Positions 4,884 to 30,556 of a DNA stretch of 35,283 bases are shown here, one piece after another. The notes below the pieces were generated by a model. That model was given only the letters and a program-made list of their open reading frames with translations. It ran no database searches and was not told the DNA's origin. Position numbers and translations under genes: made by a program. Origin of the DNA: Gemmatimonadetes bacterium SCN 70-22. GTDB taxonomy: Bacteria > Gemmatimonadota > Gemmatimonadetes > Gemmatimonadales > Gemmatimonadaceae. Numbering within the stretch: position 1 is the stretch's first letter; the number at the start of each line of letters is the position of its first letter. The stretch covers positions 1-35,283 of the forward strand of contig MEDZ01000036.1 of assembly GCA_001724275.1 (NCBI GenBank). Reading direction: 5' to 3'.

Positions 4884-6023
4884 TCAGAATCGATACGTCG
4901 CCGCGGCGCCGGTCGTGGTAGGCATGCGCTCCGCCGGGACGACGACGACCTCGCCGTTCGCACGCAGCACCGCCTCGCCAAGGTCGTCGAAGACGTCCTC
5001 CACTTCGGGATCGGCGAGCTCCGCAGAGACGATCTCCCCGGTCGTCGGGTCAATCCTCCCCGGCATCACCCGGTCCGCCTCCAGAAGCAGCGTACTCACG
5101 CGACCCTGTATCGCCGCCGCCGCCACCTCGGCGACGTCGTCCGATCCCCTCTGCCGCGCGCGCGCCGACCGCCAAGCGTCGATCAGCCCGGCGAGCCTCG
5201 ACAGGTAGGACGGCATCACCGCTTCCCACGCTCTCGAACGCAACTCGTCGGTGGTGAGTGATTCGGGGTTTACCATCAATCCCTGGTCCATGAGGAAGGG
5301 GTTCCGGCTCACCTCGCGAAATGGGAAGTGGTGTTCGGGAAGCGCCGCCAGCAGGAGCGGCAGCCCCGTAGGACGTGAGTGATGCTCGAGCACGGCGCGA
5401 TCGACGGCACGGAAGAACTTCGGGGTGTCGATGTCCACCTCGTCCTTCTTCCGCCCCGTGCCGTAGTGCATCGCGGCCTGTCCACCGACACTGCGAGCAG
5501 CGTTGTAGGGTTCGGTGAACTGCTCCCCGAGCGCCTCGGTGATCGTGCCAGGAACGTCGGCCAACTCGACCTCATCCAACGCATCGCGATTCCCCTCGAA
5601 GAGCCGCGCGCGCTCACGGGTCATGCAGAGCACCTGGTAGCGATCCGCCGATTGCAGCACCCGCAACAGCGGTTTGACGTGGAAGCTGTTGGCGACGACC
5701 GCGAACGCCTTCACCGGTCGCTGGAGCTCCAGCACCTCGAACATCCCCCCGGGCGCGCTGAGGACGACCAGTCCATCCGTGCGGTGGTTCCAGAATTGGT
5801 CGTCACGGGCCAGCGCTTCCAGCTGCTCGAGCTGCGGACGCACGTCCCGGTTTGGATACGACTTGGCCAGTGACGCCTCGACCTCCCGCAGGAGGTTGCG
5901 GTAGCGAATCGAATCCTGCTGGTTGTCCGGGTGGTGCCGGTGGGTCGGCTGGTACAGGGAGATGCACGGCGGTTGTGCCCCGGACAGCAGTCCGGCGAGA
6001 CCCGTGATGCTGAGTTGGCGCAT
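4884..6023 (-). CDS. baeRF family protein (bacterial archaeo-eukaryotic release factor-like, probably family 3)
   Basis: A 379-aa protein resembling the bacterial eRF1-like (baeRF) families. Diagnostic stretches are the N-terminal CISLYQPTHRHHPDNQQDSI, then RYRNLLREVEASL, LVVLSAPGG, FHVKPLLRVLQSADRYQVL, and C-terminal HHSRPTGLPLLLAALPEHH and FDDLGEAVLRANGEVVVVPA. Family members are proposed to act at the ribosome in stress, quality control or hibernation; that is family knowledge, not visible here. A GAGGGG upstream of the ATG is the likely ribosome-binding site. The same-strand gene upstream encodes a two-CBS protein, a frequent companion of stress genes. It converges on the SnoaL-like gene with 75 bp between stops. 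Confidence 0.82.
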   Translation of the reverse strand: MRQLSITGLAGLLSGAQPPCISLYQPTHRHHPDNQQDSIRYRNLLREVEASLAKSYPNRDVRPQLEQLEALARDDQFWNHRTDGLVVLSAPGGMFEVLELQRPVKAFAVVANSFHVKPLLRVLQSADRYQVLCMTRERARLFEGNRDALDEVELADVPGTITEALGEQFTEPYNAARSVGGQAAMHYGTGRKKDEVDIDTPKFFRAVDRAVLEHHSRPTGLPLLLAALPEHHFPFREVSRNPFLMDQGLMVNPESLTTDELRSRAWEAVMPSYLSRLAGLIDAWRSARARQRGSDDVAEVAAAAIQGRVSTLLLEADRVMPGRIDPTTGEIVSAELADPEVEDVFDDLGEAVLRANGEVVVVPAERMPTTTGAAATYRF

Positions 6024-7134: not shown

Positions 7135-10100
7135 GTGCCCGACACGTTCGCCCCCTTCGTGGCTGCCCTGGCCGACCGCTATCGCGTCGAGCGTGAACTC
7201 GGGCGCGGCGGGATGGCCACGGTCTTTCTCGCGCACGACGTCCGACACGATCGCCCCGTCGCGCTCAAGGTCCTGCACCCGGAACTCGCGGCCTCGCTCG
7301 GCGCCGAACGATTCCTGCGCGAGATCCGGATTGCAGCGCGCCTGCGGCATCCGCGCATCCTTCCCGTGCACGACTCCGGCGAGACGGTCGGATGGCTCTG
7401 GTACACGATGCCGTTCGTGGAGGGCGAGTCCCTTCGGCAGCGCCTCGCACGAGAAGGGCAGCTGCCCATCGAGCAGGCCTTGCGGATCACCTCCCAGGTC
7501 CTCGGCGCCCTCGGCTATGCCCACGCGCACGGCGTGATCCATCGCGACATCAAGCCGGAGAACATCCTGCTCGAGGGTGACGAGACGGTGGTGGCGGACT
7601 TCGGCGTGGCGCGAGCGATCAGCTCCGCCGGCCAGGATCGGTTGACCGAGACCGGGCTCGCCATCGGCACTCCCGCCTACATGAGTCCGGAGCAGGCGAC
7701 TGCAGAGAAGGAGCTCGATGGGCGGAGCGACCTGTATGCCGTGGGCTGCGTGCTCTACGAGATGCTCGCGGGGCAGCCGCCGTTCGTGGGGGCCAGCGCG
7801 CAGCAGCTGGTGGCACGCCACCTGATGGATACGCCCCCACCGATCCGCATCGTGCGCGCCACCGTGCCGGACCGCGTGGAACGCAGTGTCATGCGCGCAC
7901 TGGCCAAGCTCCCGGTGGATCGCTTCGACTCGGCAGCCGAGTTCGCGGAGGCGCTTGCCAGCGGCCCCGATGTCGTCGTTGCTCACCAAGGCGTCTCGTC
8001 CACGCCGACAGCAACGTCCGCGTGGCCGGTGGGTGCTCGAGGGCGTCGCGTGGCCGTGATGGCCGGTGCCGCGCTGACCCTCTCCCTCGCGGCGTACCTC
8101 GCATGGCCAAGGCCGAAGTCCACCCTCGACCCGAACGTGGTGGCGGTGGTTCCCTTTCGCATCGGCGGTGCGGCGCCGGCGCTCAACTACCTGCGCGAAG
8201 GGATGATCGACCTCGTCGCCGCGAGGCTGACCGGTGAGGGGAGCGCGCAAGCGGCCGATCCGGGTTCGGTGATGACGGCCTGGCGACAGGCCGCGGGATC
8301 GGAGTCGCGCGACCTCCCCGAGGCGGACATGCTCGCGCTGGCGCGCCGCCTGGGCGCGGGGCAGCTCCTGCTGGGCGGCATCGTGGGGACGACCGAGCGC
8401 CTGACAATCAACGCGTCGCTCATCCAGCTGGAGAGTGGAAACGCTCGCATTACGGCGACGGTCGAGGGGGCCGCGGATAGCCTGCCGCAGCTGGTGGATC
8501 GGCTGATCGCCGAACTGCTCACCGAAGGCACGGTCGCGGCGCACGGTCTCACGGGCCTCGTCAACACGCCGCTCCCCGCCCTGCGGCACTACCTCGAGGG
8601 TCGGTCGGCGCAGCGTCGCGCCAGGTACGCCGACGCGGTCGCCAGCTTCGGGCGGGCACTGGACGTCGATTCGACGTTCGCGTTGGCGGGGCTGAGCCTC
8701 GCGACGGCCGCGGGATGGAGCGCGATCCCCGGGGCGGGGCGTCGCGGCCTGGAGCTGGCCTGGGCAAGCCGCTACAAGCTGAGCCCGCGCGACCATGCCC
8801 TGTTGATGGCCGACGTCGGCCCCAAGTATCCCGAGACCTCCACGCTCGTGCAGCACCTCCGGGCGTGGGAGCAGGCGGCAGAGCTGGCGCCCGACGAGCC
8901 CGACCGCTGGTACGAGCTGGGCGACGAGTACTACCATGAAGCCCCGTACCTGCAGGTCGAATCGTCGCGACGGCGAGCGGCCGACGCCTTCAGGCGATCG
9001 GTCGCGCTGGACTCGGGTGCCTCGTCGATCGGGCACCTGCTCGAGATCGCGGTCCTCGACGACGACAGCGCTTCGATTCGGCGCTTGAGCGCCCTGTACC
9101 TGGCGCGCGACTCGAGCGGCAACCTGCTGGACTTCTACCGTTGGCGCATCGCCGTCGGGCTGCACGACGAGCCAGCGCTGCGCGCGCTGCGCGCGCGCTA
9201 CCGCCAGATGCGCCTCGAGAGTCTCTGGCGCATCATGAACCACGCGGTGCTCGACGGTAGCCGGATGGACGATGCCGACTCGGCCGCCGCCGCCATCCGA
9301 GCGATTGCCGCGCGCAGTTCCGATTGGCAGCGGAGCAAGACCTACCTGCACGCCTTCGAGGTGAACCGCGGTCGTCCGGCGGCGGCGCTCGCGGACACAG
9401 CTGGTTCGGACGAAGTCGAGTACGGACCGCACGCCGCGCGGTACGAGCGCGTGCTCGACGCGCTCTACGGCGATGGCGACAGCGCCAGCGGCCGCCAGGC
9501 CGCGCGCGAGTTGGAGCGGTTGGCCGGCCGTCCGCAATCGGGCGACGGCGACATGCGCGCGACCGCCCTGACGGACCTCTGCGTGGCCACGCTCTGGCGC
9601 GTGTCGCATGGCGAGACCGACGGTGCGCGCCAGGCCATCGGTCGGCTCGGGATTCGTGCGGCCGGCGACACCCCGCATGCGGCCACCTCGCACATGCTCT
9701 GCGCCGCGCTGCTGGAGGCGAAGTTCCGGTTCTCGTCAGGCGCGCCCGGTGCGGCGTCGGCGCTGGATCGCCTCGACTCGCTCATGCGCGGCGGTCCCGG
9801 TGCGCAGCGCAACGGTCCCCCTGTCTCATTCACTCTCAGTCCCGCCTATGTCCGGTCCATGATCGGGATCAGTCCGGTCGGCTTCGAGGACTTCGCGAAC
9901 ATCGAGATCGCGCGCATGCGCGAGCAGCAGGGCGACGTGCGCGCCGCGCTGGCCGCGCTGCGGCGCCGTCCGTACGCCTACCACCTCACCGACTACCTCG
10001 CCCCCACCCTGCGCGAGCACGGGCGGCTTGCTGCCCTGGCCGGCGAGCGCGCCGAGGCGATCCGCGCCTATCGACACTACCTGGCGCTGCGTTCCGATCC

Positions 10101-10170
10101 CGAGCCGGCGTTGCAGCCGGCGGTAGACGCGGTCCGCGCGGAACTGGCGAGACTGGGCGGCGCGCGCTGA
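7135..10170 (+). CDS. Receptor-type Ser/Thr protein kinase with TolB-like and TPR C-terminal half
   Basis: A 1011-aa kinase. The N-terminal domain has LGRGGMATVF, ATP lysine K45, HRDIKPEN from 136, DFG at 155-157 and IGTPAYMSPEQ. A single hydrophobic segment lies at about 306-324. The following VAVVPFRIGG...LNYLREGMIDLVAARL region resembles the TolB/FlgO-like domain that often precedes TPR arrays in bacterial kinases. The rest, to residue 1011, is helical with TPR-like repeats (LEGRSAQRRARYADAVASFG; ending EAIRAYRHYLALRSDPEPAL). GTG 7135 is preferred over TTG 7069 because V1-to-Y16 spacing before the kinase core is the same in all three kinases. No convincing Shine-Dalgarno sequence precedes either start. 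It converges with the next kinase, with 20 bp between stop codons. Confidence 0.92.
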   Translation: MPDTFAPFVAALADRYRVERELGRGGMATVFLAHDVRHDRPVALKVLHPELAASLGAERFLREIRIAARLRHPRILPVHDSGETVGWLWYTMPFVEGESLRQRLAREGQLPIEQALRITSQVLGALGYAHAHGVIHRDIKPENILLEGDETVVADFGVARAISSAGQDRLTETGLAIGTPAYMSPEQATAEKELDGRSDLYAVGCVLYEMLAGQPPFVGASAQQLVARHLMDTPPPIRIVRATVPDRVERSVMRALAKLPVDRFDSAAEFAEALASGPDVVVAHQGVSSTPTATSAWPVGARGRRVAVMAGAALTLSLAAYLAWPRPKSTLDPNVVAVVPFRIGGAAPALNYLREGMIDLVAARLTGEGSAQAADPGSVMTAWRQAAGSESRDLPEADMLALARRLGAGQLLLGGIVGTTERLTINASLIQLESGNARITATVEGAADSLPQLVDRLIAELLTEGTVAAHGLTGLVNTPLPALRHYLEGRSAQRRARYADAVASFGRALDVDSTFALAGLSLATAAGWSAIPGAGRRGLELAWASRYKLSPRDHALLMADVGPKYPETSTLVQHLRAWEQAAELAPDEPDRWYELGDEYYHEAPYLQVESSRRRAADAFRRSVALDSGASSIGHLLEIAVLDDDSASIRRLSALYLARDSSGNLLDFYRWRIAVGLHDEPALRALRARYRQMRLESLWRIMNHAVLDGSRMDDADSAAAAIRAIAARSSDWQRSKTYLHAFEVNRGRPAAALADTAGSDEVEYGPHAARYERVLDALYGDGDSASGRQAARELERLAGRPQSGDGDMRATALTDLCVATLWRVSHGETDGARQAIGRLGIRAAGDTPHAATSHMLCAALLEAKFRFSSGAPGAASALDRLDSLMRGGPGAQRNGPPVSFTLSPAYVRSMIGISPVGFEDFANIEIARMREQQGDVRAALAALRRRPYAYHLTDYLAPTLREHGRLAALAGERAEAIRAYRHYLALRSDPEPALQPAVDAVRAELARLGGAR

Positions 10171-10190: not shown

Positions 10191-13100
10191 TCAGCCGGTG
10201 GCGCGACGGAGCCGGTTCACGCGCTCTCGCACGTCCCGCACGATCGGTTGCAGCTCCGGCTCCGCGTCTCGCCAGAACTGGAGGAACGCTTCGTACGCCT
10301 CGATCGCCTGCTGCTTGTCCCCCTTTGCCTCGAACAGCTCGCCCAGCCGGCGCCAGGCGGGCGCAATCTGTGGCGTCACGGCATCGTACGTCCCCGGCGG
10401 GCCGAACTGCCGCACCCCGCGATGCTCCACGAATCGCCGGTAGGCGACGATCGCGGAATCGGTCCGCCCCGCCTTGTCCTGCGCCTCGGCCGCCTCGACG
10501 AAGGCGAGATCCCGACAGACGCCGTAACCCGTCCCCAGCACGCTGCATCCTTCCCGCAACGAGGACAACGCGTCGTCCGGCCGACCGGCCGCCAGCGCGA
10601 TGTTGGCTGACGCCACGTAGCTCATCATCCTTGCGGCAACGGCCGGGTAGTCGCGATCGCTCATCATCCCCCGGAACTCGTTCACGATCGCCTGCGCCCG
10701 TTCCGTCGCGCCCAGGCGCGCGTACGCGATCGCGAAGGGCAGGTGCCGGCGCAGGATGCGGGGGCGCGAGGCGGTGAGCTCACGATTCCGCGCCCATAGC
10801 GCGTCGAGGCGCCTGATGAGCGGTTCTGGTTGGACCGCGTAGTCCGCGTTCCACCGAGTGTCGTCGAGCTCCAGGACGAGCTCGGCGTCGGCGGCGCTCA
10901 TTTGACCGCGTTGTTGCTCCACGCGCATGGCGTTGCGCCGCTCGCGCGCTGCCTCGCCCGGACGTCCGTGCAGCGCGGCGATGGTGGCCAGCATGCGGTG
11001 ACCGACGACGCGCTCTCGTGGCGAGCGGCCGATCATGACGCGTGCGACACTGTCCGCCGCCTGAAAGTCCTGCCGAGCGGACGAGAGTGCGACGACGGCA
11101 TCGGTCAGCTCGCTCGACTCGGGGAAGTCCTCCCGAAGCTGCGCAACGACCGAGTCGGCTTCCGCAAAGCGCCCGCGGGAACCCAGGAAGACGATGGCAT
11201 TCGCATACGTGAGGGCCGGCGCCATCCGCGTGGCGATCGCGCGCCGGTAGAGATCGATGGCCTCGCGGTCGCGTCCCATGCGCTCGCGCATCGCTGCCAG
11301 ATTGTTCAGCGCCGTCGCATCGTTCGGGTACTTGGCGATGATCGCCGAGTACGCCGCATCCACCCCCGAAAAATCCGGCTCGACGACCGTGGCATACGAT
11401 GCCTCCACGAACAATCGCTCCCGCTCGGGCAGGCGGCTCCGCAGCGCGTAGGCGCGCCGAATCGCCGTGTCCCCCATGGCCCTCACGATCGGGCCCTGTC
11501 CCGGGTTCGTCGCGTACATGCCGAGCCGCCGCCACGCCATGGCGAAGCTCGTGTCCAGCTGGACCGCCTGCTGGAGCAGCGAGATCGCCTGGTCGTAGCC
11601 GGTCCTGTCCGCCGCGCGCGTGGCTTCCGCGTACAGTTGCAACGCCGGGAGCGACGCGGTCGTCACCTGCTCCAGGGGGGGATCCGCGCGGACCGAACGC
11701 AGCGACTCCCCGATCTCCTCGCGCAGTTTCGACGAGAGCCGGTCCACCGCGTCCATGAGCTCGTCCGGCGATGCGACCTCCTGCCGCAAGGTCACCAGCG
11801 CGTCGCCTGTTGACGGACTGACCAGCCTGGCGGTGACGACGAACCCGCTCCCGACCGGGAGAATCTCGCCGGCCAGGTACGCCTTGATCCCCTCGCGGGT
11901 CGCGATCTCCTGCGCGACATCCGGGGTGACGTCCGTTGCCCGATCGCGCTGCATCCGCTCCAGCACCATCGACACCTGGCCCGGCTCCATGACCGAGATC
12001 GATGGCGACTGGGCCAGGTCGATGCGCAGGAGCTGCGTGACGGTGAGGGCCAGGGTGCTGTCGTCGGTGCGATTCGTGAAATCGGCAATCACGATCCGGT
12101 CGCGCGGCGCAAGCACACCGGCGCTCATCAGGGTTGCCCCGGGGCCGATGCCCAACGCGCGCGACGTCATGAACGCCGCCGTCAGCATCCCCAACCCGGC
12201 GAAGGCCAGGACGCCACCCTGGATCGAGCGGCGCCAGGTGAAGAGGCGCGCGAGCCCGACCGGCGTGGGAGCCTGCAATGCGGCAGCCCGTTGCCGCTCG
12301 CGCGCGCTGGTGAGCAACATGATCGGAACGCCAGCCACGAGGAGCCCGATCGCCCCTTGAAAGACCCAGTCGGGGAGGGCGAGCGACTGGACGAGGATCC
12401 AGGCGAGGGCGAGGACGGCGACCGAGGCCAGCCCGAAGAGGACCGCCCATCGCCACGAGTGGGGTTCGCGATCCGGCTTGGGCGCGTTCAGGGGCGCGGG
12501 CACCGGTGCGGGCTCCGGTGCGGGCTCCGGTGCGGGCACCGGTGCAGCCGCCGTCCGCGCACTGGCGGCCGGCGTCGACACCACGCTTGCCAGCGAGTCC
12601 AGGTGCGGGATGATCTCTCCCGCGGTCTGCCAGCGGTCGGCCGGCCGCTTCTCCAGGCAGCGCAGGACGATGGTGTCGAGCGCCGCAGGGCTCGACCGCC
12701 GCAGCGTGGCGAGCGACGGTGCCGGCTGCGACATGTGGGCGGCGAGGACCGCCTGCGTGGTCGCGCCACGAAACGGCTGGAGTCCGGTCACCATCTCGAA
12801 GGCCAGCGCCCCGATCGCATAGATGTCGGCGCGCTGGTCCACGTTAGGCTCGGCGGCGATCTGCTCCGGCGCCATGTAGGCCGGCGTCCCCACGGCAATC
12901 CCGGTCGACGTCAGGCGCACGTCGCTGGTGGCATCGACCAGCGCCTTGGCCACGCCGAAGTCGGCAACCATCGCATGGTTCCCGGCAAGGAGGATGTTGT
13001 CCGGCTTGATGTCACGATGAACGACGCCATGCCGATGGGCGTACTCGACCGCGTCCAGCACCTCGCGCAACAGCTTCACGACATCGGCCAACGGCAGCTC

Positions 13101-13421
13101 ACCGTCGCGTGCCAGCCGCGCCCGCAGCGACTCGCCCTCGACGTACGGCATCACGTAGTACGGGAGGTCATCGGCCGAGCCCGCTGCGAGCAGCGGCACG
13201 ATGTGCGGATGCTGGAGCTGCGCGGCGAGACGGATCTCCCGCGCGAATCGCTGGCCGTTGACCCCGCTTGCCATCTCGGGCGGGAGCACCTTGAGCACGA
13301 CCCGGCGCCCGAGGCCGACGTCCTCGGCGACGAAGACACGGCTCATCCCGCCGCCGAGCTCGCGCTCGATTCGGTAGGTCGCGCCGAGGGCGCGCTGAAT
13401 CCGTTCGAACAGGTCGGACAC
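10191..13421 (-). CDS. Multi-pass Ser/Thr protein kinase with TPR domain
   Basis: A 1076-aa kinase with K44, HRDIKPDN from 135, DFG at 154-156 and VGTPAYMAPEQ. Its Gly loop reads LGGGMSRVF, one residue shorter than LGRGGMATVF in the other two kinases. A Pro/Ala/Glu linker at about 294-310 is encoded by 12-bp tandem repeats. Three hydrophobic segments follow (about 325-346, 353-371, 402-420), then a TolB-like domain (RIVIADFTNRTDDSTLALTV) and many TPR-like helices to the C-terminus (YPNDATALNNLAAMRERMGR; KGDKQQAIEAYEAFLQFW). GTG 13421 (VSDLFERIQRALGATYRIE) is preferred from the shared V1-to-Y16 spacing; ATG 13469 would add 16 residues and is the alternative. The C-terminal motif AEPELQPIVRDVRERVNRL resembles the end of the neighbouring kinase, suggesting common ancestry. 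Confidence 0.92.
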   Translation of the reverse strand: MSDLFERIQRALGATYRIERELGGGMSRVFVAEDVGLGRRVVLKVLPPEMASGVNGQRFAREIRLAAQLQHPHIVPLLAAGSADDLPYYVMPYVEGESLRARLARDGELPLADVVKLLREVLDAVEYAHRHGVVHRDIKPDNILLAGNHAMVADFGVAKALVDATSDVRLTSTGIAVGTPAYMAPEQIAAEPNVDQRADIYAIGALAFEMVTGLQPFRGATTQAVLAAHMSQPAPSLATLRRSSPAALDTIVLRCLEKRPADRWQTAGEIIPHLDSLASVVSTPAASARTAAAPVPAPEPAPEPAPVPAPLNAPKPDREPHSWRWAVLFGLASVAVLALAWILVQSLALPDWVFQGAIGLLVAGVPIMLLTSARERQRAAALQAPTPVGLARLFTWRRSIQGGVLAFAGLGMLTAAFMTSRALGIGPGATLMSAGVLAPRDRIVIADFTNRTDDSTLALTVTQLLRIDLAQSPSISVMEPGQVSMVLERMQRDRATDVTPDVAQEIATREGIKAYLAGEILPVGSGFVVTARLVSPSTGDALVTLRQEVASPDELMDAVDRLSSKLREEIGESLRSVRADPPLEQVTTASLPALQLYAEATRAADRTGYDQAISLLQQAVQLDTSFAMAWRRLGMYATNPGQGPIVRAMGDTAIRRAYALRSRLPERERLFVEASYATVVEPDFSGVDAAYSAIIAKYPNDATALNNLAAMRERMGRDREAIDLYRRAIATRMAPALTYANAIVFLGSRGRFAEADSVVAQLREDFPESSELTDAVVALSSARQDFQAADSVARVMIGRSPRERVVGHRMLATIAALHGRPGEAARERRNAMRVEQQRGQMSAADAELVLELDDTRWNADYAVQPEPLIRRLDALWARNRELTASRPRILRRHLPFAIAYARLGATERAQAIVNEFRGMMSDRDYPAVAARMMSYVASANIALAAGRPDDALSSLREGCSVLGTGYGVCRDLAFVEAAEAQDKAGRTDSAIVAYRRFVEHRGVRQFGPPGTYDAVTPQIAPAWRRLGELFEAKGDKQQAIEAYEAFLQFWRDAEPELQPIVRDVRERVNRLRRATG
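12498..12545 (-). repeat. 12-bp tandem repeat, 4 copies, in the kinase linker
   Basis: Four 12-bp units on the plus strand, GGGCACCGGTGC / GGGCTCCGGTGC / GGGCTCCGGTGC / GGGCACCGGTGC. On the coding strand they give the Ala-Pro-Glu/Val-Pro repeat between the kinase domain and the first membrane segment. Changes in copy number would alter linker length without changing frame. Confidence 0.85.
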
Positions 13422-14021
13422 GCTGAGGCGGGCGGGGCAGGGGTCGGACTGCAAAGGTACGATCCGCATCGCTGCCGCAACAGGACGCCTGATGCGACAC
13501 AGTCATCTCGATGGATCACCCGCCATCGCGCCCGGCGTCACGCATTCCGTGTCTTGTTTCCGGGTCGTGGACCGGGATTCCAGTCGAGCAGCTCCGACGG
13601 TTCGGTCGTCTCTGGCCATGAGGAGCCGCTCCGGCCGGTTCCCGTCGCGGAGACCGCCCGACGCCCCGCAGCAGCCGCACCGCCGCACCCCAAACGACGA
13701 CGTGCAGCGTCGTGACGTCTGGCGCAACGGCGAGGCCGATCCCCTGCCGCTCGGCCGCGCGACCTCCGGCGTGATGAACGGGAGCGGGGGCATCGGCAAT
13801 GCGGTTCGCGCCGGAAAGGCAGCCATTGGGCGGAGGCGCGGATCCGGGAGGCGAACCGGTCGCACGCTCCGGCCACGTATCGATTGCCCCGAGCCGTCAC
13901 CGTCGCCAACATACGGCGTCCGGCTTGGCACGCGCGCCGAATTCGGCGTGCGGCGCAAGCGCCTGTCCCCCGCACTTCGCCACCGACGGCCGCGGTTCCG
14001 GCCGTCCTCCGGGAGCCCTTC
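13422..14021. other. Divergent intergenic region, kinase / amidohydrolase
   Basis: 600 bp between the preferred starts of two divergent genes (552 bp if the kinase starts at 13469). The only structured element found is the 14-bp palindrome at 13935-13948. Long open frames on both strands here have no recognisable domain and look GC-driven. Confidence 0.55.
13935..13948. promoter_or_regulatory. 14-bp perfect palindrome upstream of the amidohydrolase operon
   Basis: CGCCGAATTCGGCG, 73 bp before the amidohydrolase GTG. TTGGCA at 13925-13930, just upstream, could be a -35 element, with the palindrome then in the spacer. An operator is possible, but chance is not excluded in GC-rich DNA. Confidence 0.3.
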
Positions 14022-24118: not shown

Positions 24119-25444
24119 ATGCCACATAGCAGCGTCGAGGAGTACAATGCGGCCCAATCGCCCGCCGACCGGGCGATCTGCCAGCTGCTGGCCGAGGAGA
24201 TCACGCGCCACCTCCCCGAGGCGGAACACAAGATCTGGCACGCCCACCCCGTTTGGTTCCTCGACGGCAACCCGATCGTCGGGTACAGCAAGCTCAAGAA
24301 CAGCGTGCGGCTGCTGTTCTGGAGCGGCCAGTCGTTCGACGAGGCCGGGCTGGCGGCGGAGGGGACCTTCAAGGCCGCCGAGGCGCGCTATACGAAGGTC
24401 GACGATGTCGACACCAAGGTGCTCCAGCGCTGGCTGGCCAAGGCCCGCGATATCCAGTGGGACTACAAGAACATCGTGCGAAGCAAGGGACGGCTGGAGC
24501 GGCTGGAGACGTCGCCGGCAAAGCCTGCCCCCCGCGCACGCACGGCGCGGAAGCCGGCCGCCGGTGCAACGGCGGGGCCAAAGACGGGGCCAAAGACGGG
24601 GCCAAAGACGGGGCCAAAGACGGGGCCAAAGACGGGCTCCGCCACGCAAGACGCGTCGCGCCTCATCGACCAGCGGATCCGCGACCTGGGGGGATGGCGC
24701 GGGGAGACGCTGGCCCGCATGCGGGCGCTCGTACTCGATGCCGCATCAGGAATGATCGAGGAGTGGAAGTGGGACAATCCCGTCTGGTCGCACGGCGGGA
24801 TCGTCTGCACCGGCGAGGCCTACCAGAAGGTCGTGAAGCTCACCTTCGCCCGGGGAGCCAGCGTCCCGGACCCCTCGCACCTCTTCAATTCCAGCCTGAC
24901 GGGGAACACCCGCCGCGCGATCGATATCCGCGAGGGGGAGAAGGTCGACGCGCGCGCCTTCAAGGCGCTCGTCAAGGCGGCGGTGGCGCTCAACGGGTCC
25001 AAGGACGGCACGGGAGGGACCACGGCGAGCAAGCGCCCGCGCTTGCGCCTCCTCGCCGGTGGCAACCCCCAGGTCGCCAAGGCGGACGGTGACGCCCCCG
25101 TGCAGGCGTACATCGCCGCCATGCCGGGGTGGAAGCGTGAGCTGGGCGCGCGGCTCGACGCCATCATCTCGCGCGCGGTGCCTAACGTGCGCAAGGCGGT
25201 CAAGTGGAACTCGCCGTTCTACGGCATCGAGGGACAGGGGTGGTTCCTGTCGTTCCACGTCTACACCCACTACGTGAAGGTCACCTTCTTTCGCGGCACG
25301 TCGTTGCAGCCGGTGCCGCCTGGGGGCACCCCACGCAGCAAGGACGCCCGCTGGATCGACCTTCGCGAGGGCGACCGGCTCGACGAACGGCAGTTCGCGG
25401 CATGGGTGCGGCAGGGCGCAGCGCTTCCCGGCTGGACCCCCTGA
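24119..25444 (+). CDS. Protein with three tandem DUF1801-like domains
   Basis: A 441-aa soluble protein with three copies of the small DUF1801 (YdhG-like) fold, normally found singly at about 110-140 aa. Domain 1 (about 15-120) has KIWHAHPVWFLDGNPIVGYS and VRLLFWSG. Domain 2 (185-293) has EEWKWDNPVWSHGGIVCTGE and VVKLTFARGA. Domain 3 (325-438) has RKAVKWNSPFYGI and YVKVTFFRGT. Domains 1 and 2 are joined by a (Gly-Pro-Lys-Thr)5 linker at 153-172, encoded by a tandem repeat. ATG 24119 has GAGGAA 6 nt upstream. The DUF1801 function is poorly defined. Three diverged domains in one chain suggest distinct roles or a pseudo-trimer. Confidence 0.85.
   Translation: MPHSSVEEYNAAQSPADRAICQLLAEEITRHLPEAEHKIWHAHPVWFLDGNPIVGYSKLKNSVRLLFWSGQSFDEAGLAAEGTFKAAEARYTKVDDVDTKVLQRWLAKARDIQWDYKNIVRSKGRLERLETSPAKPAPRARTARKPAAGATAGPKTGPKTGPKTGPKTGPKTGSATQDASRLIDQRIRDLGGWRGETLARMRALVLDAASGMIEEWKWDNPVWSHGGIVCTGEAYQKVVKLTFARGASVPDPSHLFNSSLTGNTRRAIDIREGEKVDARAFKALVKAAVALNGSKDGTGGTTASKRPRLRLLAGGNPQVAKADGDAPVQAYIAAMPGWKRELGARLDAIISRAVPNVRKAVKWNSPFYGIEGQGWFLSFHVYTHYVKVTFFRGTSLQPVPPGGTPRSKDARWIDLREGDRLDERQFAAWVRQGAALPGWTP
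24574..24633 (+). repeat. 12-bp tandem repeat, 5 exact copies, in the DUF1801 gene
   Basis: Five identical units of GGGGCCAAAGAC, in frame, encoding the Gly-Pro-Lys-Thr linker. Perfect identity between copies indicates recent expansion and likely length variation between strains. Confidence 0.95.
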
Positions 25445-25473: not shown

Positions 25474-25518
25474 ACGCCGAGCGCGCCAAGCGCGCCAAGC
25501 ACGCCAAGCACGCCAAGC
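25474..25518. repeat. 9-bp intergenic tandem repeat, 5 copies
   Basis: Units ACGCCGAGC, GCGCCAAGC (twice) and ACGCCAAGC (twice), starting 29 bp after the DUF1801 stop codon. Noncoding as far as I can see, and a potential variable-number locus. Unit length and lack of spacers rule out CRISPR. Confidence 0.85.
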
Positions 25519-25664
25519 GCGCCCGTACCCACAACCTCGACGGCCGGCATTCTCCCGGGCACCTGACACGCGGTGCCCGTGACCTGCAACACGTGCGTTG
25601 GCGGCCCACGACATTATCGTGCGCCCGCTCCGCTCGCCCCCTGGCGCGCCGCCGCTCGCACGCA

Positions 25665-25699
25665 CCAAACGTTTGGCCACGCGGTGACGCCCATACCCT
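25665..25699 (+). promoter_or_regulatory. Palindrome and probable promoter of the 946-aa/PhoD-like unit
   Basis: CCAAACGTTTGG at 25665-25676 is a perfect 12-bp palindrome. TTTGGC at 25672-25677 could be the -35, with TACCCT at 25694-25699 as -10 (16-bp spacer), similar to the TACCGT -10 at 2883. The leader to ATG 25731 would be about 25 nt and contains GGAGG at 25718-25722. Regulation through the palindrome is inference. Confidence 0.45.
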
Positions 25700-25730: not shown

Positions 25731-28571
25731 ATGGCATCACCGAAGCGCCTGACCGACCTGATCGACTACACCGCGGTCCTGCCATACGATAGCGAGCTCT
25801 TCGGCATCTACCAGCCGTTGCTCGGCTGGAAGTCCAAGCGCATCGCCTCCCGCCTCGACGCCGGCTACGACAACGATCGCCGATCCCTCCTGGAGCGGTT
25901 CGGCCGGCAGTTCAGCGGGCTCATCGACGTCACCTACGGCGAACGCTGCGAGGTGAAGATCAAGGTGCAACCCGGCGCGGCCACGGCGGTGGGGCTGCGC
26001 ACCTTCGACAGCGTCCTGCTGGCGAAGCTGGCAACCAAGTTCCCCGCGGGTGAGCGCCTCAAGCCGGCGCTCTGGCAGAAGCTCCTCTCCGCAGAGGAGC
26101 TCGAGCGCACCTTCGCGCAGGAGGTCACCCCCGTCTACACCGAGCTCTACCAGCAGCTCTGCAAGGGAGAGGCGACGGGGCGCTTCGAGACACTCGCGCG
26201 CAGCCGTGCGCTCGAACCCGATCGCGCCCGGGCCACGTTGGAGAGCCGGCTGCGCTACGAGTCGTCGATGGCCGGGGCGCTCCAGTACCTGGCCGCGCAG
26301 AAGGCCTTCGGCACGCTGGCCGACGTCTTCTTCACCACCAGGGACAACGCCGCCAAGGCGGCGTCGCTGCTGCAGGCACTCGGCGCCGCCAACCCCATCG
26401 AGGGGGCGCTCGGCCTGGACACGCTCAACCCGCGCGACCGCGAGCACCTGCAACGCGTGGCGCTCTCGCCGATCAGCGTCGTGCACCTCTTCCGGCAGTA
26501 CTTCTTCGAGCTCGACTCCTTCCTCGGCACGCCGGTCGGCCACGTGTGGATGAGCCCGGGCTCCACCGTGGAGCTGGTCGAGGTGCAGACGCGCCGCGTG
26601 GTTGTGGAGAAGACGCTGGAGCAGGCGCTGGAGACGACCTTCCGCAACGAGACGCAGACCAGCACGCAGGAAGAGATCAGCGAGGCGGTGAAGCAGGACA
26701 ACAAGGACGACATCAAGTTCGGGGCGAGCGTGAGCGCCTCCTACGCCTCGGTGACGGCCACGTCCAGCTTCGACTACAGCCGCAGCCAGCAGCAGGCCCG
26801 GGAGGAGTCGCACAAGCGGATGCGGCAGCAGACCGAGAAGCTGTCCAGCGAGATCCGCAAGAGCTTCAAGTCCACGTTCAAGACCATCAGCGAGACGACC
26901 GACACGTCGAGCAAGCGCTACGTCCTGACCAACACCACCGACGCCCTCATCAACTACGAGCTGCGGCGCAAGATGCGCCAGGTGGCGGTGCAGGTGCAGG
27001 ACGTCGGGAGCTACCTGTGCTGGCAGACCTATGTGGACCGCCCGGGCGAGCAGCTGGGGCTCGCCCAGCTGATGCACATCGCCAAGCCCGCCGACCTGGA
27101 CGGCATCCCGGCGCCGGAAGAGATCCCGATGCTGCAGCCGTTCGCCGAGCAGAAGGTGGTCACCATCCCGTTCATCTCGATCGAGGGGACCGACGCCGAC
27201 AACGAGGGGGAGGTGTACAAGGACGGCGTCGAAGTGGACGACTCGGAGTGGTTCGGCAACCTCGAGAAGATCCAGTCCGACTTCCCGATGGAGGCGGTCT
27301 GCCCGCGCTCGGGCTACGTGCTGGAGAACGTCGAGTTCGACGGCCAGGGGAAGCCGGTGCAGGCATCGCGCAAGGGAGGGATCGACAACGGCGACAACCG
27401 CGCCAAGTTCACCTTGCACCTGGACTCGGCGGACTTCCAGGGGCAGAACAGCGTGCAGGTGGGGCTCACCCTGCACTGGTCGCCGGCCCCGGGGGCCAAC
27501 GACGACGTCGTCGCCAGGAACAAGGCCAACCTCGACGCGTTCAAGGCGCGCGAGGCCGCCGAGTTCCAGAAGGCCTTCCTCGAGACGGCCAAGGAGCGCA
27601 TCAAGCTCACCCACGAGATCGCGCAGCGCCCCAGCGATGAGCTGCGGGAGGAGGAGCGGATCGTCGTCTACCGCAAGCTCATCCAGGAGATGCTGACGGC
27701 GGGCGTCCCGATGCCCGACGACCGGACGCGCCACGTGGTGGCGGAGCTGATCAACTCGATCTTCGACGTCGACAAGATGCTGTACTTCGTGGCGCCCGAG
27801 TGGTGGCGGCCGCGTTTCTACGACGCCAAGCAGCAGCTGGAGCCGCGCTCCCCGGCGCGCGAGCTCGTCCGCCGCCTCGACGCCGGCGTGCGGAGCCTGT
27901 TGCAGGGGCTCGCGAACGCGGCCAGCAGCGGGAACGCCGCCGCCCTCGCCGCCACCAAGGTCGGCTGGGGGGGCATGGACGATCCCAACCGCGACAACTA
28001 CTGGATCACCGCCGACTCGCAGCCGGCACGCTTCGGCAGCTCGCTCGGCTGGCTGTTGCAGCTGGACGGCGACAACATGCGCAATGCCTTCCTCAACGCC
28101 CCGTGGGTCAAGGCGGTGATCCCCATCCGCCCCGGCAAGGAGGAGGCCGCGATCAACTGGCTCCAGGGGGTGGAAGGGTTCAACGGGATCGGGCCGGCGG
28201 ACATCTACCAGACCGACAATCCCAACGAGAAGGACATCGACGGCAACCCGCTGAACGGGCAGCCGATGCTCGACGTGATCATGGACCTGGCGCGCAAGAT
28301 CCGGCGGAAGCACCAGGAGGGAGTCGAGACGGGGAAGTATCCCAAGGAGGACGAGATCGCCGATCCGCAGCTGGTGGACGAGGCGAACGTGGTCACCAGT
28401 ACCCCCATCGACCGCGTCTACGAACACGGCTTCTATCCGCTGGAGGGGGGCTTCCGGGCCAACGTCGGGGGGAACTACGAGATCTTCGACCAGTGGCTGG
28501 AGATCCTCCCCACCGACCAGGTGGTCCCCGTCGAGGTGAAGTACGACCCGAAGACCGGGCGACAGGTCTGA
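25731..28571 (+). CDS. Large protein of unrecognised family, partner of a PhoD-like phosphatase
   Basis: A 946-aa protein I do not recognise. There is no signal peptide and no classical transmembrane helix. It starts MASPKRLTDLIDYTAVLPYD, with GGAGG 8 nt before ATG. The N-terminal third is mixed alpha/beta. Around residues 300-395 is a distinctive block: a Thr/Glu/Gln-rich lead-in (RNETQTSTQEEISEAVKQDN), an alternating small/hydrophobic stretch (KFGASVSASYASVTATSSFD, from 329), then a charged predicted coiled coil (QQQAREESHKRMRQQTEKLS). A conserved-looking GSYLCWQTYVDRPGEQLGLA follows. The C-terminal third includes WWRPRFYDAKQQL and GWLLQLDGDNMRNAFLNAPW. The gene ends 2 nt before the metallophosphatase start, so the two are one unit. 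A structural, pore or scaffold role is speculation. Confidence 0.85.
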   Translation: MASPKRLTDLIDYTAVLPYDSELFGIYQPLLGWKSKRIASRLDAGYDNDRRSLLERFGRQFSGLIDVTYGERCEVKIKVQPGAATAVGLRTFDSVLLAKLATKFPAGERLKPALWQKLLSAEELERTFAQEVTPVYTELYQQLCKGEATGRFETLARSRALEPDRARATLESRLRYESSMAGALQYLAAQKAFGTLADVFFTTRDNAAKAASLLQALGAANPIEGALGLDTLNPRDREHLQRVALSPISVVHLFRQYFFELDSFLGTPVGHVWMSPGSTVELVEVQTRRVVVEKTLEQALETTFRNETQTSTQEEISEAVKQDNKDDIKFGASVSASYASVTATSSFDYSRSQQQAREESHKRMRQQTEKLSSEIRKSFKSTFKTISETTDTSSKRYVLTNTTDALINYELRRKMRQVAVQVQDVGSYLCWQTYVDRPGEQLGLAQLMHIAKPADLDGIPAPEEIPMLQPFAEQKVVTIPFISIEGTDADNEGEVYKDGVEVDDSEWFGNLEKIQSDFPMEAVCPRSGYVLENVEFDGQGKPVQASRKGGIDNGDNRAKFTLHLDSADFQGQNSVQVGLTLHWSPAPGANDDVVARNKANLDAFKAREAAEFQKAFLETAKERIKLTHEIAQRPSDELREEERIVVYRKLIQEMLTAGVPMPDDRTRHVVAELINSIFDVDKMLYFVAPEWWRPRFYDAKQQLEPRSPARELVRRLDAGVRSLLQGLANAASSGNAAALAATKVGWGGMDDPNRDNYWITADSQPARFGSSLGWLLQLDGDNMRNAFLNAPWVKAVIPIRPGKEEAAINWLQGVEGFNGIGPADIYQTDNPNEKDIDGNPLNGQPMLDVIMDLARKIRRKHQEGVETGKYPKEDEIADPQLVDEANVVTSTPIDRVYEHGFYPLEGGFRANVGGNYEIFDQWLEILPTDQVVPVEVKYDPKTGRQV

Positions 28572-28573
28572 TC

Positions 28574-30556
28574 GTGACCACCGACGACATCTTCTTCGGT
28601 CCGCTGCTTCGACGCTGCGAGCCGGAGCTCGTCGTCATCCAGCTCGCCACCTATTCCCGGCCAGACATCCGCTTCAGCGTGAAGCTGGCCGGGACGGGCG
28701 CCTGGCTTGCCCACGACGAGCACCCATTCACGGTGCAGGTCACCGAGCGCCTCTTCATCACCTTCGGTCGCATCCGGCCACCGCAGCCGTTCCCCACGGG
28801 GGCGCTGCTGGCGTACGGCATCGGCGTGCGCACGGCGACGGGGTGGGACGATGCCCCCTTCGCCGATCTCGTCAGGCAGGAGAAGCTGGCCTACGACGGA
28901 CAGGCGCTCCCCACGTTCTTCCTGCAGCGCCCGCGCGCCCCCCTCACGGCGTTCTACGGCTCCTGCCGCAAGATCCACGACGCCCACGGCGGGAAGACCG
29001 ATACCATGGCCGACGGCGACACCCTGGTGGCGCGCCACGTGACCGACCTTGCTCGGCGCCCCGCGGTCATGTGCCTCGGCGGCGACCAGGTATACGCCGA
29101 CGACGTGCACGACCTGGTGATGCGGCAGGTCATCGCGCTGTCGCGGAAGATCCAGCCGAAGGTCGAGGAACTCCCCGGCCCCGGGCGGCACGTCGGTGTC
29201 GGCAAGCGCGCCACCATCCTCAAGCGCTACGCCGGCCTGACCTCGGACGACCTGGACAACCACATGATCCGGCTCGCCGAGTACCTGGCGCTGTACGGGC
29301 TGATGTGGAACGTCCGCACGTGGAGCGACCCGCCGAAGGAGCTGGAGCACTTCACCAAGGGGCTCCCCGCCGCGCGGCGGCTGATGGCGAACTGCCCCAC
29401 GTACATGGTGTTCGACGACCACGACGTCACCGACGACTGGAACCTGAGCGTCCGGTGGAAGCGGGAGGTCTGGGCGAAGGAGCTGGGTCGCCGCGTGGTG
29501 GCCAACGCGCTCATGGCGTACTGGCTGTGCCAGGGCTACGGCAACGACCCCGACGCGTTCGGCGACGCCGGCGACCTCGCGGCGCTCGTGGAGGGGCGCG
29601 AGCGCCGGTACCCGCAGTGCGAGGAGGCGTTCTGGCGCATCGACCGCTGGGAGTTCTGCGTCCCCAGCGACCCGTTCATCTACTTCCTGGACACGCGCAC
29701 CATGCGGGGGCACCAGGACCACGATGCCGACCACGACCCCACCGGCCCCGCCTGGCTCAAGACCAAGCCGTCGTGGGACGCCACCATGCGACGGCTGCAA
29801 TCGCTCACCCGCAACTGGCCCACCACCCGCCCCATCGTCCTCGTCTCCGCCGCGCCGGTCTTCGGCTTTTCCAGCATCGAGTGGCTGCAGCGCTTCATCT
29901 CGTTCTTCATGGGCGACTACAAGTACGACTACGAGAACTGGGCGGCCAACGAGGAGCACCTCCACCAGTTCCTGCGCCTGATGGCCGGGCGCAACGTCGT
30001 GCTCCTGTCGGGCGACCTGCACTACGGCTACTCCTCGACCGTGCGCTACACCGTCTTCGACAGCCTTGCGCACCGCGCCGGGCCCAGGCGGACCTCTCCC
30101 ACCGGTGTCCTGCACCCGGCGCCCGCCGGCGCGACTCCGACCTACGATCCCGTCAGCACCGTGCAATTCCTGCAGCTGACGAGCAGCGCCATCAAGAACT
30201 ACGCGAGCAAGTTCCTCAAGTTCGTCTCGCGCTTCTCGGGGTCGCCCGTGGGGACGATCGTCGACGACGACGGGCGCTCGGCCTACGGGAGGTTCGAGAA
30301 CGGCGTCTTCGTGGTGCTGGAGCAGGACGAGAACGGGAGCGGCTTCTCCCTGGTGCAACGGACCCGGCAGGAGGTGCGCCCGGCCACCTACTTCCGCCAG
30401 CGCATCGCCGACGCGTACAACAGCGGCTACCTCGAGGGGCACAACCTCGGCATGGTCCGCATCCGCGACTCGTCGGTGGAGCACTCGTTCCTGACGCCGG
30501 GCGGTGTGGCGTCGCAGCGGAGCTGGGACTTCTCGAACGCGCGGTACTGGCAGTAG
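28574..30556 (+). CDS. PhoD-like metallophosphatase
   Basis: A 660-aa protein with PhoD-family metallophosphatase signatures: GDQVYADD (G170-D177), the DDHD block FDDHDVTDDWN (D281, D282, H283, D284) and GDLHYG (G480-H483), which supply the di-metal ligands for phosphomono/diester hydrolysis. Residues 1-125 form a beta-rich N-terminal domain (FSVKLAGTGAWLAHDEHPFT) as in other PhoD-like proteins. There is no Tat or Sec signal, so unlike classical secreted PhoD it is probably cytoplasmic. GTG 28574 lies 2 nt after the previous stop with no strong Shine-Dalgarno sequence, so translation is probably coupled. The phosphatase likely acts on, or is targeted by, the upstream 946-aa protein; the substrate is unknown. 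Confidence 0.88.
   Translation: MTTDDIFFGPLLRRCEPELVVIQLATYSRPDIRFSVKLAGTGAWLAHDEHPFTVQVTERLFITFGRIRPPQPFPTGALLAYGIGVRTATGWDDAPFADLVRQEKLAYDGQALPTFFLQRPRAPLTAFYGSCRKIHDAHGGKTDTMADGDTLVARHVTDLARRPAVMCLGGDQVYADDVHDLVMRQVIALSRKIQPKVEELPGPGRHVGVGKRATILKRYAGLTSDDLDNHMIRLAEYLALYGLMWNVRTWSDPPKELEHFTKGLPAARRLMANCPTYMVFDDHDVTDDWNLSVRWKREVWAKELGRRVVANALMAYWLCQGYGNDPDAFGDAGDLAALVEGRERRYPQCEEAFWRIDRWEFCVPSDPFIYFLDTRTMRGHQDHDADHDPTGPAWLKTKPSWDATMRRLQSLTRNWPTTRPIVLVSAAPVFGFSSIEWLQRFISFFMGDYKYDYENWAANEEHLHQFLRLMAGRNVVLLSGDLHYGYSSTVRYTVFDSLAHRAGPRRTSPTGVLHPAPAGATPTYDPVSTVQFLQLTSSAIKNYASKFLKFVSRFSGSPVGTIVDDDGRSAYGRFENGVFVVLEQDENGSGFSLVQRTRQEVRPATYFRQRIADAYNSGYLEGHNLGMVRIRDSSVEHSFLTPGGVASQRSWDFSNARYWQ

What the first reader, a model, noticed from the sequence alone, without database searches (positions are those of the whole stretch)
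25731..30556. Two-gene unit: unrecognised 946-aa protein plus signal-less PhoD-like metallophosphatase
The large protein matches no family I know, yet sits 2 nt upstream of a phosphatase with complete PhoD metal motifs (GDQVYADD, DDHD, GDLH). PhoD enzymes are usually secreted; this one has no signal peptide, implying an intracellular substrate linked to its partner. A perfect palindrome and promoter-like boxes precede the unit. This is the best candidate here for an undescribed system.
Basis: partly seen in the sequence, partly recalled or inferred. Interest (0 to 1): 0.72.

Follow-up and report, generated by a model that had tools for sequence, protein, structure and literature searches.

The report
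Undescribed carrier with swappable enzyme partners
A large, previously undescribed bacterial protein travels between distant bacteria with a single neighbouring enzyme gene that is repeatedly swapped for unrelated enzymes (here a PhoD-type phosphatase, elsewhere lipases, cell-wall amidases, chitinase-like or protease-like proteins), which suggests a modular device for carrying enzymes to a target.

Summary
The two genes are real: a 946-aa ORF (A, 25731-28571) followed after 2 nt by a 660-aa PhoD-like metallophosphatase (B, 28574-30556). A matches nothing in Pfam, NCBIfam, PHROGs or PADLOC, or in PDB sequences. The PhoD pairing is not the rule: only 5 of 76 scorable A loci carry it. But 76 of 81 A loci have one adjacent co-directional partner gene, and its family changes. 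Partners include HKD phospholipase D, alpha/beta-hydrolase-like, Amidase_2, GH18-like, zincin-like, M14-like, caspase-like and REase-toxin-like proteins. Near-identical A genes (93-97%) carry unrelated partners between homologous flanks: cassette exchange. A is scattered over many phyla and was found in 1 of 395 genomes of this phylum (plus weak domain matches in two others). It has no signal peptide, no immunity-like follower in 63 of 69 loci, no need for contractile injection systems, and no defence-island context. AlphaFold shows a conserved body with an amphipathic hairpin region and a hypervariable beta-sandwich resembling H-type lectins and pyocin-fibre tips. Best reading: an undescribed modular effector system in which A binds or delivers and the partner is the enzyme. 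Modular exchange is shown; secretion, target and toxicity are inferred.

The parts
25731..28571 (+). Gene A: 946-aa constant component, no described family, no signal peptide, no TM helix
   Evidence: 80 relatives in many phyla; alignment A1
26451..26600 (+). A residues 241-290: near-invariant strand block (P247, F258, F264, H271, W273, P276, E281, E284, R288), first long strand(s) of the hairpin
   Evidence: Mean majority fraction 0.79, 22/50 columns at 90% or more; AF2 models
26601..26777 (+). A residues 291-349: S/T/G/A-rich low-confidence insert between the long strands; possible membrane-interacting segment (inference)
   Evidence: pLDDT under 50 over most of 287-345; sequence pattern
26778..27110 (+). 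A residues 350-460: conserved helix plus second long strand block (motif E-L/Y-x-RRKM...Q-x-Q...LCWQ)
   Evidence: 37/111 columns at 90% or more
27129..27491 (+). A residues 467-587: beta-sandwich, H-type-lectin-like and pyocin-fibre-tip-like, the most variable domain-sized part of A
   Evidence: pLDDT mostly 90-97; VIA Z 5-6 to 2vme, 6cl5, 2ce6; 0 of 130 columns at 90% in 461-590
27966..28220 (+). A residues 746-830: most conserved C-terminal core (LGSSLGWLLQLDGDN.RNAFLNAPWVKAVIPIRPGKE)
   Evidence: 41/83 columns at 90% or more
28574..30556 (+). Gene B: 660-aa PhoD-like metallophosphatase, the exchangeable partner in this genome; GTG start, 2 nt after A
   Evidence: PF09423 above cut-off; single copy in own genome, no full-length match among 298 genomes of the phylum
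29081..29104 (+). B GDQVYADD motif
   Evidence: conserved in five A-linked PhoD proteins
29414..29425 (+). B DDHD motif (FDDHDVTDDW)
   Evidence: conserved in five A-linked PhoD proteins
30011..30022 (+). B GDLH motif
   Evidence: GD(L/V)H in five A-linked PhoD proteins
25665..25676 (.).

Best explanation
A and B form one instance of a widespread, horizontally moving two-gene effector module. A is the constant carrier. Its hypervariable lectin-like beta-sandwich probably recognises a target surface, and its conserved body with an amphipathic long-strand hairpin probably oligomerises and engages or crosses the target membrane. The partner is the exchangeable enzymatic cargo, here a PhoD-type phosphatase that would hydrolyse phosphoesters (for example phospholipid or teichoic-acid-type polymers) at the target. 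A and partner are made together from one transcript, probably associate in the cytoplasm, and leave by lysis or an unidentified route, because neither has a signal peptide. The target is probably a distantly related organism, because no immunity gene normally accompanies the unit. SHOWN: the two-gene unit, one-partner-per-A architecture, partner exchange with A unchanged, wide horizontal spread, hypervariable beta-sandwich, lack of signal peptides, absence of obligate contractile systems. INFERRED: physical A-partner complex, lectin function, membrane interaction, release, toxicity, target.
For: 76 of 81 A loci have one adjacent co-directional partner, 59 within 60 nt, mostly downstream, in eight upstream. 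Partners fall in 27 BLAST clusters, including HKD phospholipase D (13; one matches PDB phospholipases D at 1.6e-14), Amidase_2 (7), an alpha/beta-hydrolase-like group with GxSxG in most members (10), GH18-like (6), PhoD (5), Tox-REase-5-like (3), zincin motifs, M14/AstE-like, DUF6345, Amidase_6. On the A tree there are 47 partner-family changes. Cassette swap: L029 vs L016, A 91% identical DNA up to its last codons, partners unrelated, downstream flank again 82% identical; L017 vs L021 the same; A 93-97% identical at protein level with unrelated partners. The beta-sandwich has 0/130 columns at 90%, against 22/50 and 37/111 in the preceding blocks, and resembles H-type lectins and R-pyocin fibre tips (Z 5-6; viral H-type lectin models prob 0.97-0.99). 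Pro-rich partner N-termini, a possible docking tail: 12/76 partners vs 5/441 flanking genes, p 1.5e-7. Immunity-like follower gene in only 6/69 units. Lack of linked immunity marks toxins aimed at distant organisms (PMC3482391).
Against: No toxicity, binding or secretion was tested. VIA Z values of 5-6 and the Foldseek E-values (none under 0.001) are weak, so the lectin resemblance is a lead only. The hairpin region is low confidence and its membrane role is inferred from sequence pattern. Several partner assignments are below Pfam cut-offs (Amidase_2 in all but one, Tox-REase-5, AstE, Amidase_6) or rest on motifs alone. Partners such as a beta-helix protein, a vWA protein or the OmpA-tailed proteins do not obviously act as toxins.
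Confidence: 0.5

Rival explanations
1. A is a carrier or anchor that displays secreted scavenging enzymes on polymers or dead cells (nutrient acquisition), not a weapon.
For: Most partners are hydrolases of phosphoesters, lipids, peptidoglycan, glycans or peptides; lectin-like beta-sandwich; no linked immunity genes.
Against: Nuclease-toxin-like (Tox-REase-5) and caspase-like partners and one-to-one rapid swapping look more like conflict effectors. No signal peptides, unlike normal scavenging exoenzymes. No polymer-utilisation genes were enriched nearby.
Confidence: 0.2
2. Anti-phage defence: A is an intracellular sensor and the swapped partner is the abortive-infection effector.
For: Constant-plus-variable-effector architecture, patchy horizontal distribution, no signal peptides; effectors overlap with defence effectors (phospholipases, nucleases, caspase-like).
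Against: No PADLOC match for A or B. Genes next to the unit are no richer in defence families than more distant ones in the same loci and are mostly housekeeping. Peptidoglycan-amidase-like, GH18-like and GH5-like partners have no cytoplasmic target. A carries a hypervariable lectin-like domain instead of a known sensor or NTPase.
Confidence: 0.12
3. Cargo pair of a contractile injection system (T6SS, or eCIS such as the PVC type).
For: Partners include classical T6SS-type effector activities (PLD, lipase, amidase); Pro-rich N-terminal tails could be loading tags.
Against: Own genome has neither sheath family. Of 50 A-bearing genomes, 25 have neither family at E 0.001. Many hosts are Gram-positive, and no injection genes flank A.
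Confidence: 0.06
4. One reading: A and PhoD are a dedicated intracellular pair acting on one substrate.
For: Tight coupling here (2 nt); PhoD partner recurs in several separate branches of the A tree.
Against: Only 5 of 76 partners are PhoD-like; closest A relatives (about 64-72%) have other partners.
Confidence: 0.04

Closest known systems
Polymorphic toxin systems (Zhang et al. 2012, PMC3482391)
   Same: Conserved delivery part with exchanged toxin or effector parts replaced by recombination; shared effector repertoire (REase, peptidase, amidase, lipase activities).
   Different: The variable part is a separate, complete gene instead of a C-terminal domain; immunity gene normally missing; no recognised trafficking domain; A belongs to no described family.
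Binary and tripartite toxins (constant binding/pore subunit plus enzyme subunit; Tc toxins and bacterial binary toxins, from general knowledge)
   Same: Separate carrier and enzyme genes; possible receptor-binding and membrane segments in the carrier.
   Different: No sequence or significant fold relation to known carriers; far greater enzyme diversity; no signal peptides.
T6SS effectors of the Tle5/PldA, Tae and Tse types
   Same: Partner enzyme classes overlap; one HKD partner matches PDB phospholipases D, including 7v53 at 9.8e-13.
   Different: No T6SS in 41 of 50 A-bearing genomes or in this genome; linked to A instead of VgrG, PAAR or adaptor genes.
H-type lectins / R-pyocin tail-fibre tips (Helix pomatia agglutinin 2ce6, discoidin II 2vme, 6cl5)
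   Same: Beta-sandwich of A 467-587 aligns over about 80-90 residues at Z about 5-6.
   Different: Low sequence identity, weak Z; embedded in the middle of a 946-aa protein.
PhoD alkaline phosphatase / phosphodiesterase family (PF09423)
   Same: Metal-binding motifs complete; passes Pfam cut-off.
   Different: No signal peptide; long N- and C-terminal additions; co-transcribed with A.

Membership tests
PhoD-like phosphatase (gene B) | PF09423 score above gathering cut-off | tested here: met
   33.9 vs 27 bits
PhoD-like phosphatase (gene B) | Complete metal-binding motifs GDxxY, FDDHD, GDxH | tested here: met
   conserved in five homologues
PhoD-like phosphatase (gene B) | Secreted, usually with a signal peptide | tested here: not met
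   no hydrophobic N-terminus
Polymorphic toxin system | Constant part with exchangeable effector part | tested here: met
Polymorphic toxin system | Effector is the C-terminal domain of the same polypeptide | tested here: not met
   separate downstream or upstream gene
Polymorphic toxin system | Adjacent immunity gene | tested here: not met
   co-directional gene within 100 nt after only 6 of 69 units
Polymorphic toxin system | Effectors are toxic to cells | not testable with these tools
   needs an assay
T6SS or eCIS cargo | Sheath genes in the genome | tested here: not met
   own genome lacks PF04984 and PF05943; 25 of 50 A-bearing genomes lack both
Anti-phage defence system | Match to a known defence family | tested here: not met
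   no PADLOC match for A or B; undescribed systems remain possible
Anti-phage defence system | Location in defence islands | tested here: not met
   near flanks not richer in defence families than far flanks; ordinary genes
Anti-phage defence system | Protects against phage | not testable with these tools
   -
H-type lectin (A 467-587) | H-type lectin beta-sandwich fold | tested here: inconclusive
   Z 5-6 with 2vme, 2ce6, 4q56 but no Foldseek E under 0.001
H-type lectin (A 467-587) | Carbohydrate binding | not testable with these tools
   -
Beta-pore-forming protein (A 240-440) | Amphipathic hairpin forming an oligomeric beta-barrel | tested here: inconclusive
   two long strands around a low-confidence S/T/G-rich insert; no significant fold match

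The most novel reading that the evidence does not exclude
A defines a previously unknown class of bacterial protein-delivery vehicle: a soluble, injection-machine-independent particle with a hypervariable lectin-like receptor domain that loads whatever enzyme is encoded in the adjacent slot, shared by Gram-negative and Gram-positive bacteria of many phyla.
Probability: 0.35. Interest if true: 0.93.

Novelty: new variant of a known kind. Interest (0 to 1): 0.76.

Why it matters
If A is a general carrier for interchangeable enzymes, it would be an undescribed weapon or delivery system spread over many bacterial phyla and missed by the family libraries searched here. Its slot would be a catalogue of effector enzymes, many unclassified. 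A naturally modular carrier whose receptor domain and cargo both vary could also be studied as a programmable protein-delivery scaffold. The A-B co-purification and membrane tests are simple and decisive.

Tried and rejected
PHROGs, PADLOC, NCBIfam and PDB-sequence searches with A gave only chance matches. A was not found in 50,697 phage records and was found on one plasmid-collection replicon, Embleya. The single viral-contig hit L084 has the same coordinates as the Nitrosomonas communis contig L013 and is most likely the same bacterial contig, not a phage. Foldseek against PDB and BFVD with the whole model and with residues 232-600 gave no E under 0.001. Rotavirus VP5, staphylococcal leukotoxin/gamma-hemolysin and Cry78 or Tpp80 toxins appear in the lists, but with rmsd over 10 A and were not used. 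Palindrome and promoter: rejected as chance. Contractile-system cargo: rejected as obligate. Defence island: no support. Literature searches found general polymorphic-toxin papers but nothing describing A; the held library lacks most subscription papers and preprints. Automatic gene calling missed or mis-started some partners; these were corrected by reading ORFs.

Full report
WHAT WAS CHECKED. The window lies in a 4.70-Mb, 84-contig genome (G000:C36) with one copy of A. A (25731-28571, 946 aa) and B (28574-30556, 660 aa) are intact and separated by 2 nt. A has no match in Pfam, NCBIfam, PHROGs, PADLOC or PDB sequences. B passes the Pfam PhoD cut-off and its metal motifs are kept in all five A-linked PhoD proteins. 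No promoter-like box was found.

A IS A HORIZONTALLY SPREAD FAMILY. A scan of 84,980 species genomes gave 96 relatives, of which 80 were kept. They come from Chloroflexota, Pseudomonadota (Legionella, Nitrosomonas, Rhizobium), Actinomycetota, Bacillota, Bacteroidota, Nitrospirota, Planctomycetota, Myxococcota and others. The closest (about 64-69%) are in Chloroflexi, Rhizobiales and Microbacterium. Within the window's own phylum, full-length A was found in 1 of 395 genomes, with a weak domain match in G100 and, by profile, also in G092. On a tree of 81 A proteins the phylum label changes at least 32 times. B shows the same pattern: one copy here, and no full-length match among 298 genomes of the phylum.

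THE PARTNER SLOT. In the relatives a PhoD-like gene follows A in only four (L025, L036, L040, L050). Yet gene calling and ORF reading found one adjacent co-directional partner in 76 of 81 loci, 59 of them within 60 nt. The partner is usually downstream and in eight loci upstream. The five others are a contig end (L048), an A gene interrupted next to a transposase-like ORF (L057), and three loci without a clear partner (L064, L072, L081). The partners fall into 27 BLAST clusters. The largest are HKD phospholipases D (13; L004 matches PDB PLDs at 1.6e-14), an alpha/beta-hydrolase-like group with GxSxG in most members (10), Amidase_2-type proteins (7), a GH18-like group (6; weak), PhoD (5), two further hydrolase-like groups (4 and 4) and Tox-REase-5-like proteins (3). 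Others carry HExxH zincin motifs (L006, L031, L033), M14/AstE-like (L013, L071), DUF6345 (L005), Amidase_6 (L023), GH5-like (L009, by motif only), OmpA-tailed, beta-helix and vWA domains. Several Pfam matches are below the curated cut-off, so individual labels are tentative; that the partners are different families is not.

PARTNERS ARE SWAPPED WHILE A STAYS. The A tree needs 47 changes of partner family. Direct proof comes from near-identical loci. L029 and L016 share A at 91% DNA identity up to its last codons. Their partners are unrelated (GH18-like vs caspase-like), and the downstream flank is again 82% identical. L017 and L021 show the same, and L012 vs L016 loses identity exactly at the end of A. 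The A proteins in such pairs are 93-97% identical, while partner alignments are at background, about 20%. PhoD partners sit on at least four separate branches of the A tree, so the PhoD cassette in the window is probably one of several independent acquisitions.

ANATOMY OF A. The AlphaFold model of A (mean pLDDT 70) and of residues 232-600 show a well-predicted beta-sandwich at 467-587 (pLDDT mostly 90-97 in the second model). It is preceded by two long conserved strand blocks that flank a low-confidence S/T/G/A-rich insert and a helix. VIA-align places the sandwich near discoidin II and Helix agglutinin H-type lectin domains, R1-pyocin fibre tips and phage tailspike ends at Z 5-6. Viral H-type lectin models rank high by probability. 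No E-value is significant, so this is a lead. The sandwich is the most variable domain-sized part of A (0 of 130 columns at 90%), while the neighbouring blocks and the C-terminal core are highly conserved (22/50, 37/111, 41/83). A constant body with a hypervariable recognition-like domain is what a receptor-binding carrier would show; this step is inference.

EXPORT, IMMUNITY AND CONTEXT. Neither A nor nearly any partner has a hydrophobic N-terminus. Twelve of 76 partners, against 5 of 441 flanking genes, start with a strongly Pro-rich stretch (p 1.5e-7), a candidate docking tail or linker. Only 6 of 69 units are followed within 100 nt by a co-directional gene, so a linked immunity gene is not normal. 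Zhang et al. (PMC3482391) take linked immunity as the mark that separates kin-directed polymorphic toxins from toxins aimed at distant organisms. The genome here lacks phage-sheath and VipB genes, and 25 of 50 A-bearing genomes lack both, so no contractile machine is required. Flanking genes are ordinary and not enriched in defence families.

INTERPRETATION. Shown: a two-gene unit with a constant, undescribed protein and an exchangeable, mostly enzymatic partner, moving horizontally across phyla. Most likely (0.5): A is a carrier that recognises a target surface and brings its partner enzyme to or into it, here a PhoD phosphatase. I file it as a new variant of a known kind, because constant-plus-variable effector systems are known. 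A separate-gene, immunity-free, machine-independent version built on an undescribed protein is not one I could find, and a categorically new delivery class is not excluded.

LIMITS. Completeness of the relative set depends on back-translated peptide patterns, so counts are lower bounds. Gene starts are computed. Partner labels rest on HMM hits, motifs and BLAST clusters. No complex prediction was available. The literature library is partial.

Noticed in passing
L088:1311-4079 (G092) and L082:697-3186 (G100): Distant, shorter A-superfamily members in the same class as the window's genome, sharing the long-strand domain and a C-terminal (L/V)PTDG motif. The G092 one lies next to a possible papain-like cysteine peptidase gene. 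The superfamily is wider than the A family proper.
   Followed up: partly
L012:2742-2873: A 132-bp stretch 81-86% identical to the start of A in related loci lies about 5 kb upstream of the intact A, apparently a remnant of a second A copy.
   Followed up: no
L057:8001-10208: A is cut after about residue 703 and a transposase-like ORF follows; probable insertion-sequence disruption.
   Followed up: no
window 25474-25523: Short tandem repeat with 9-nt period (GCGCCAAGC-like) at the 3' end of the upstream gene region.
   Followed up: no
window 4884-6023: Bacterial archaeo-eukaryotic release-factor-like protein (baeRF family 3, E 6e-48).
   Followed up: no
window 191-2749, 7366-10170 and 10191-13469: Ser/Thr protein kinase genes; the one at 10191-13469 has C-terminal TPR repeats, the other two are recognised from sequence only.
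   Followed up: no
window 24119-25444: Triplicated DUF1801 protein directly upstream of A; not conserved next to A elsewhere as far as seen.
   Followed up: no
L023 and L041 downstream of the partner: A second co-directional gene follows the partner closely (840 aa and 454 aa), so some units may carry two cargo genes.
   Followed up: no
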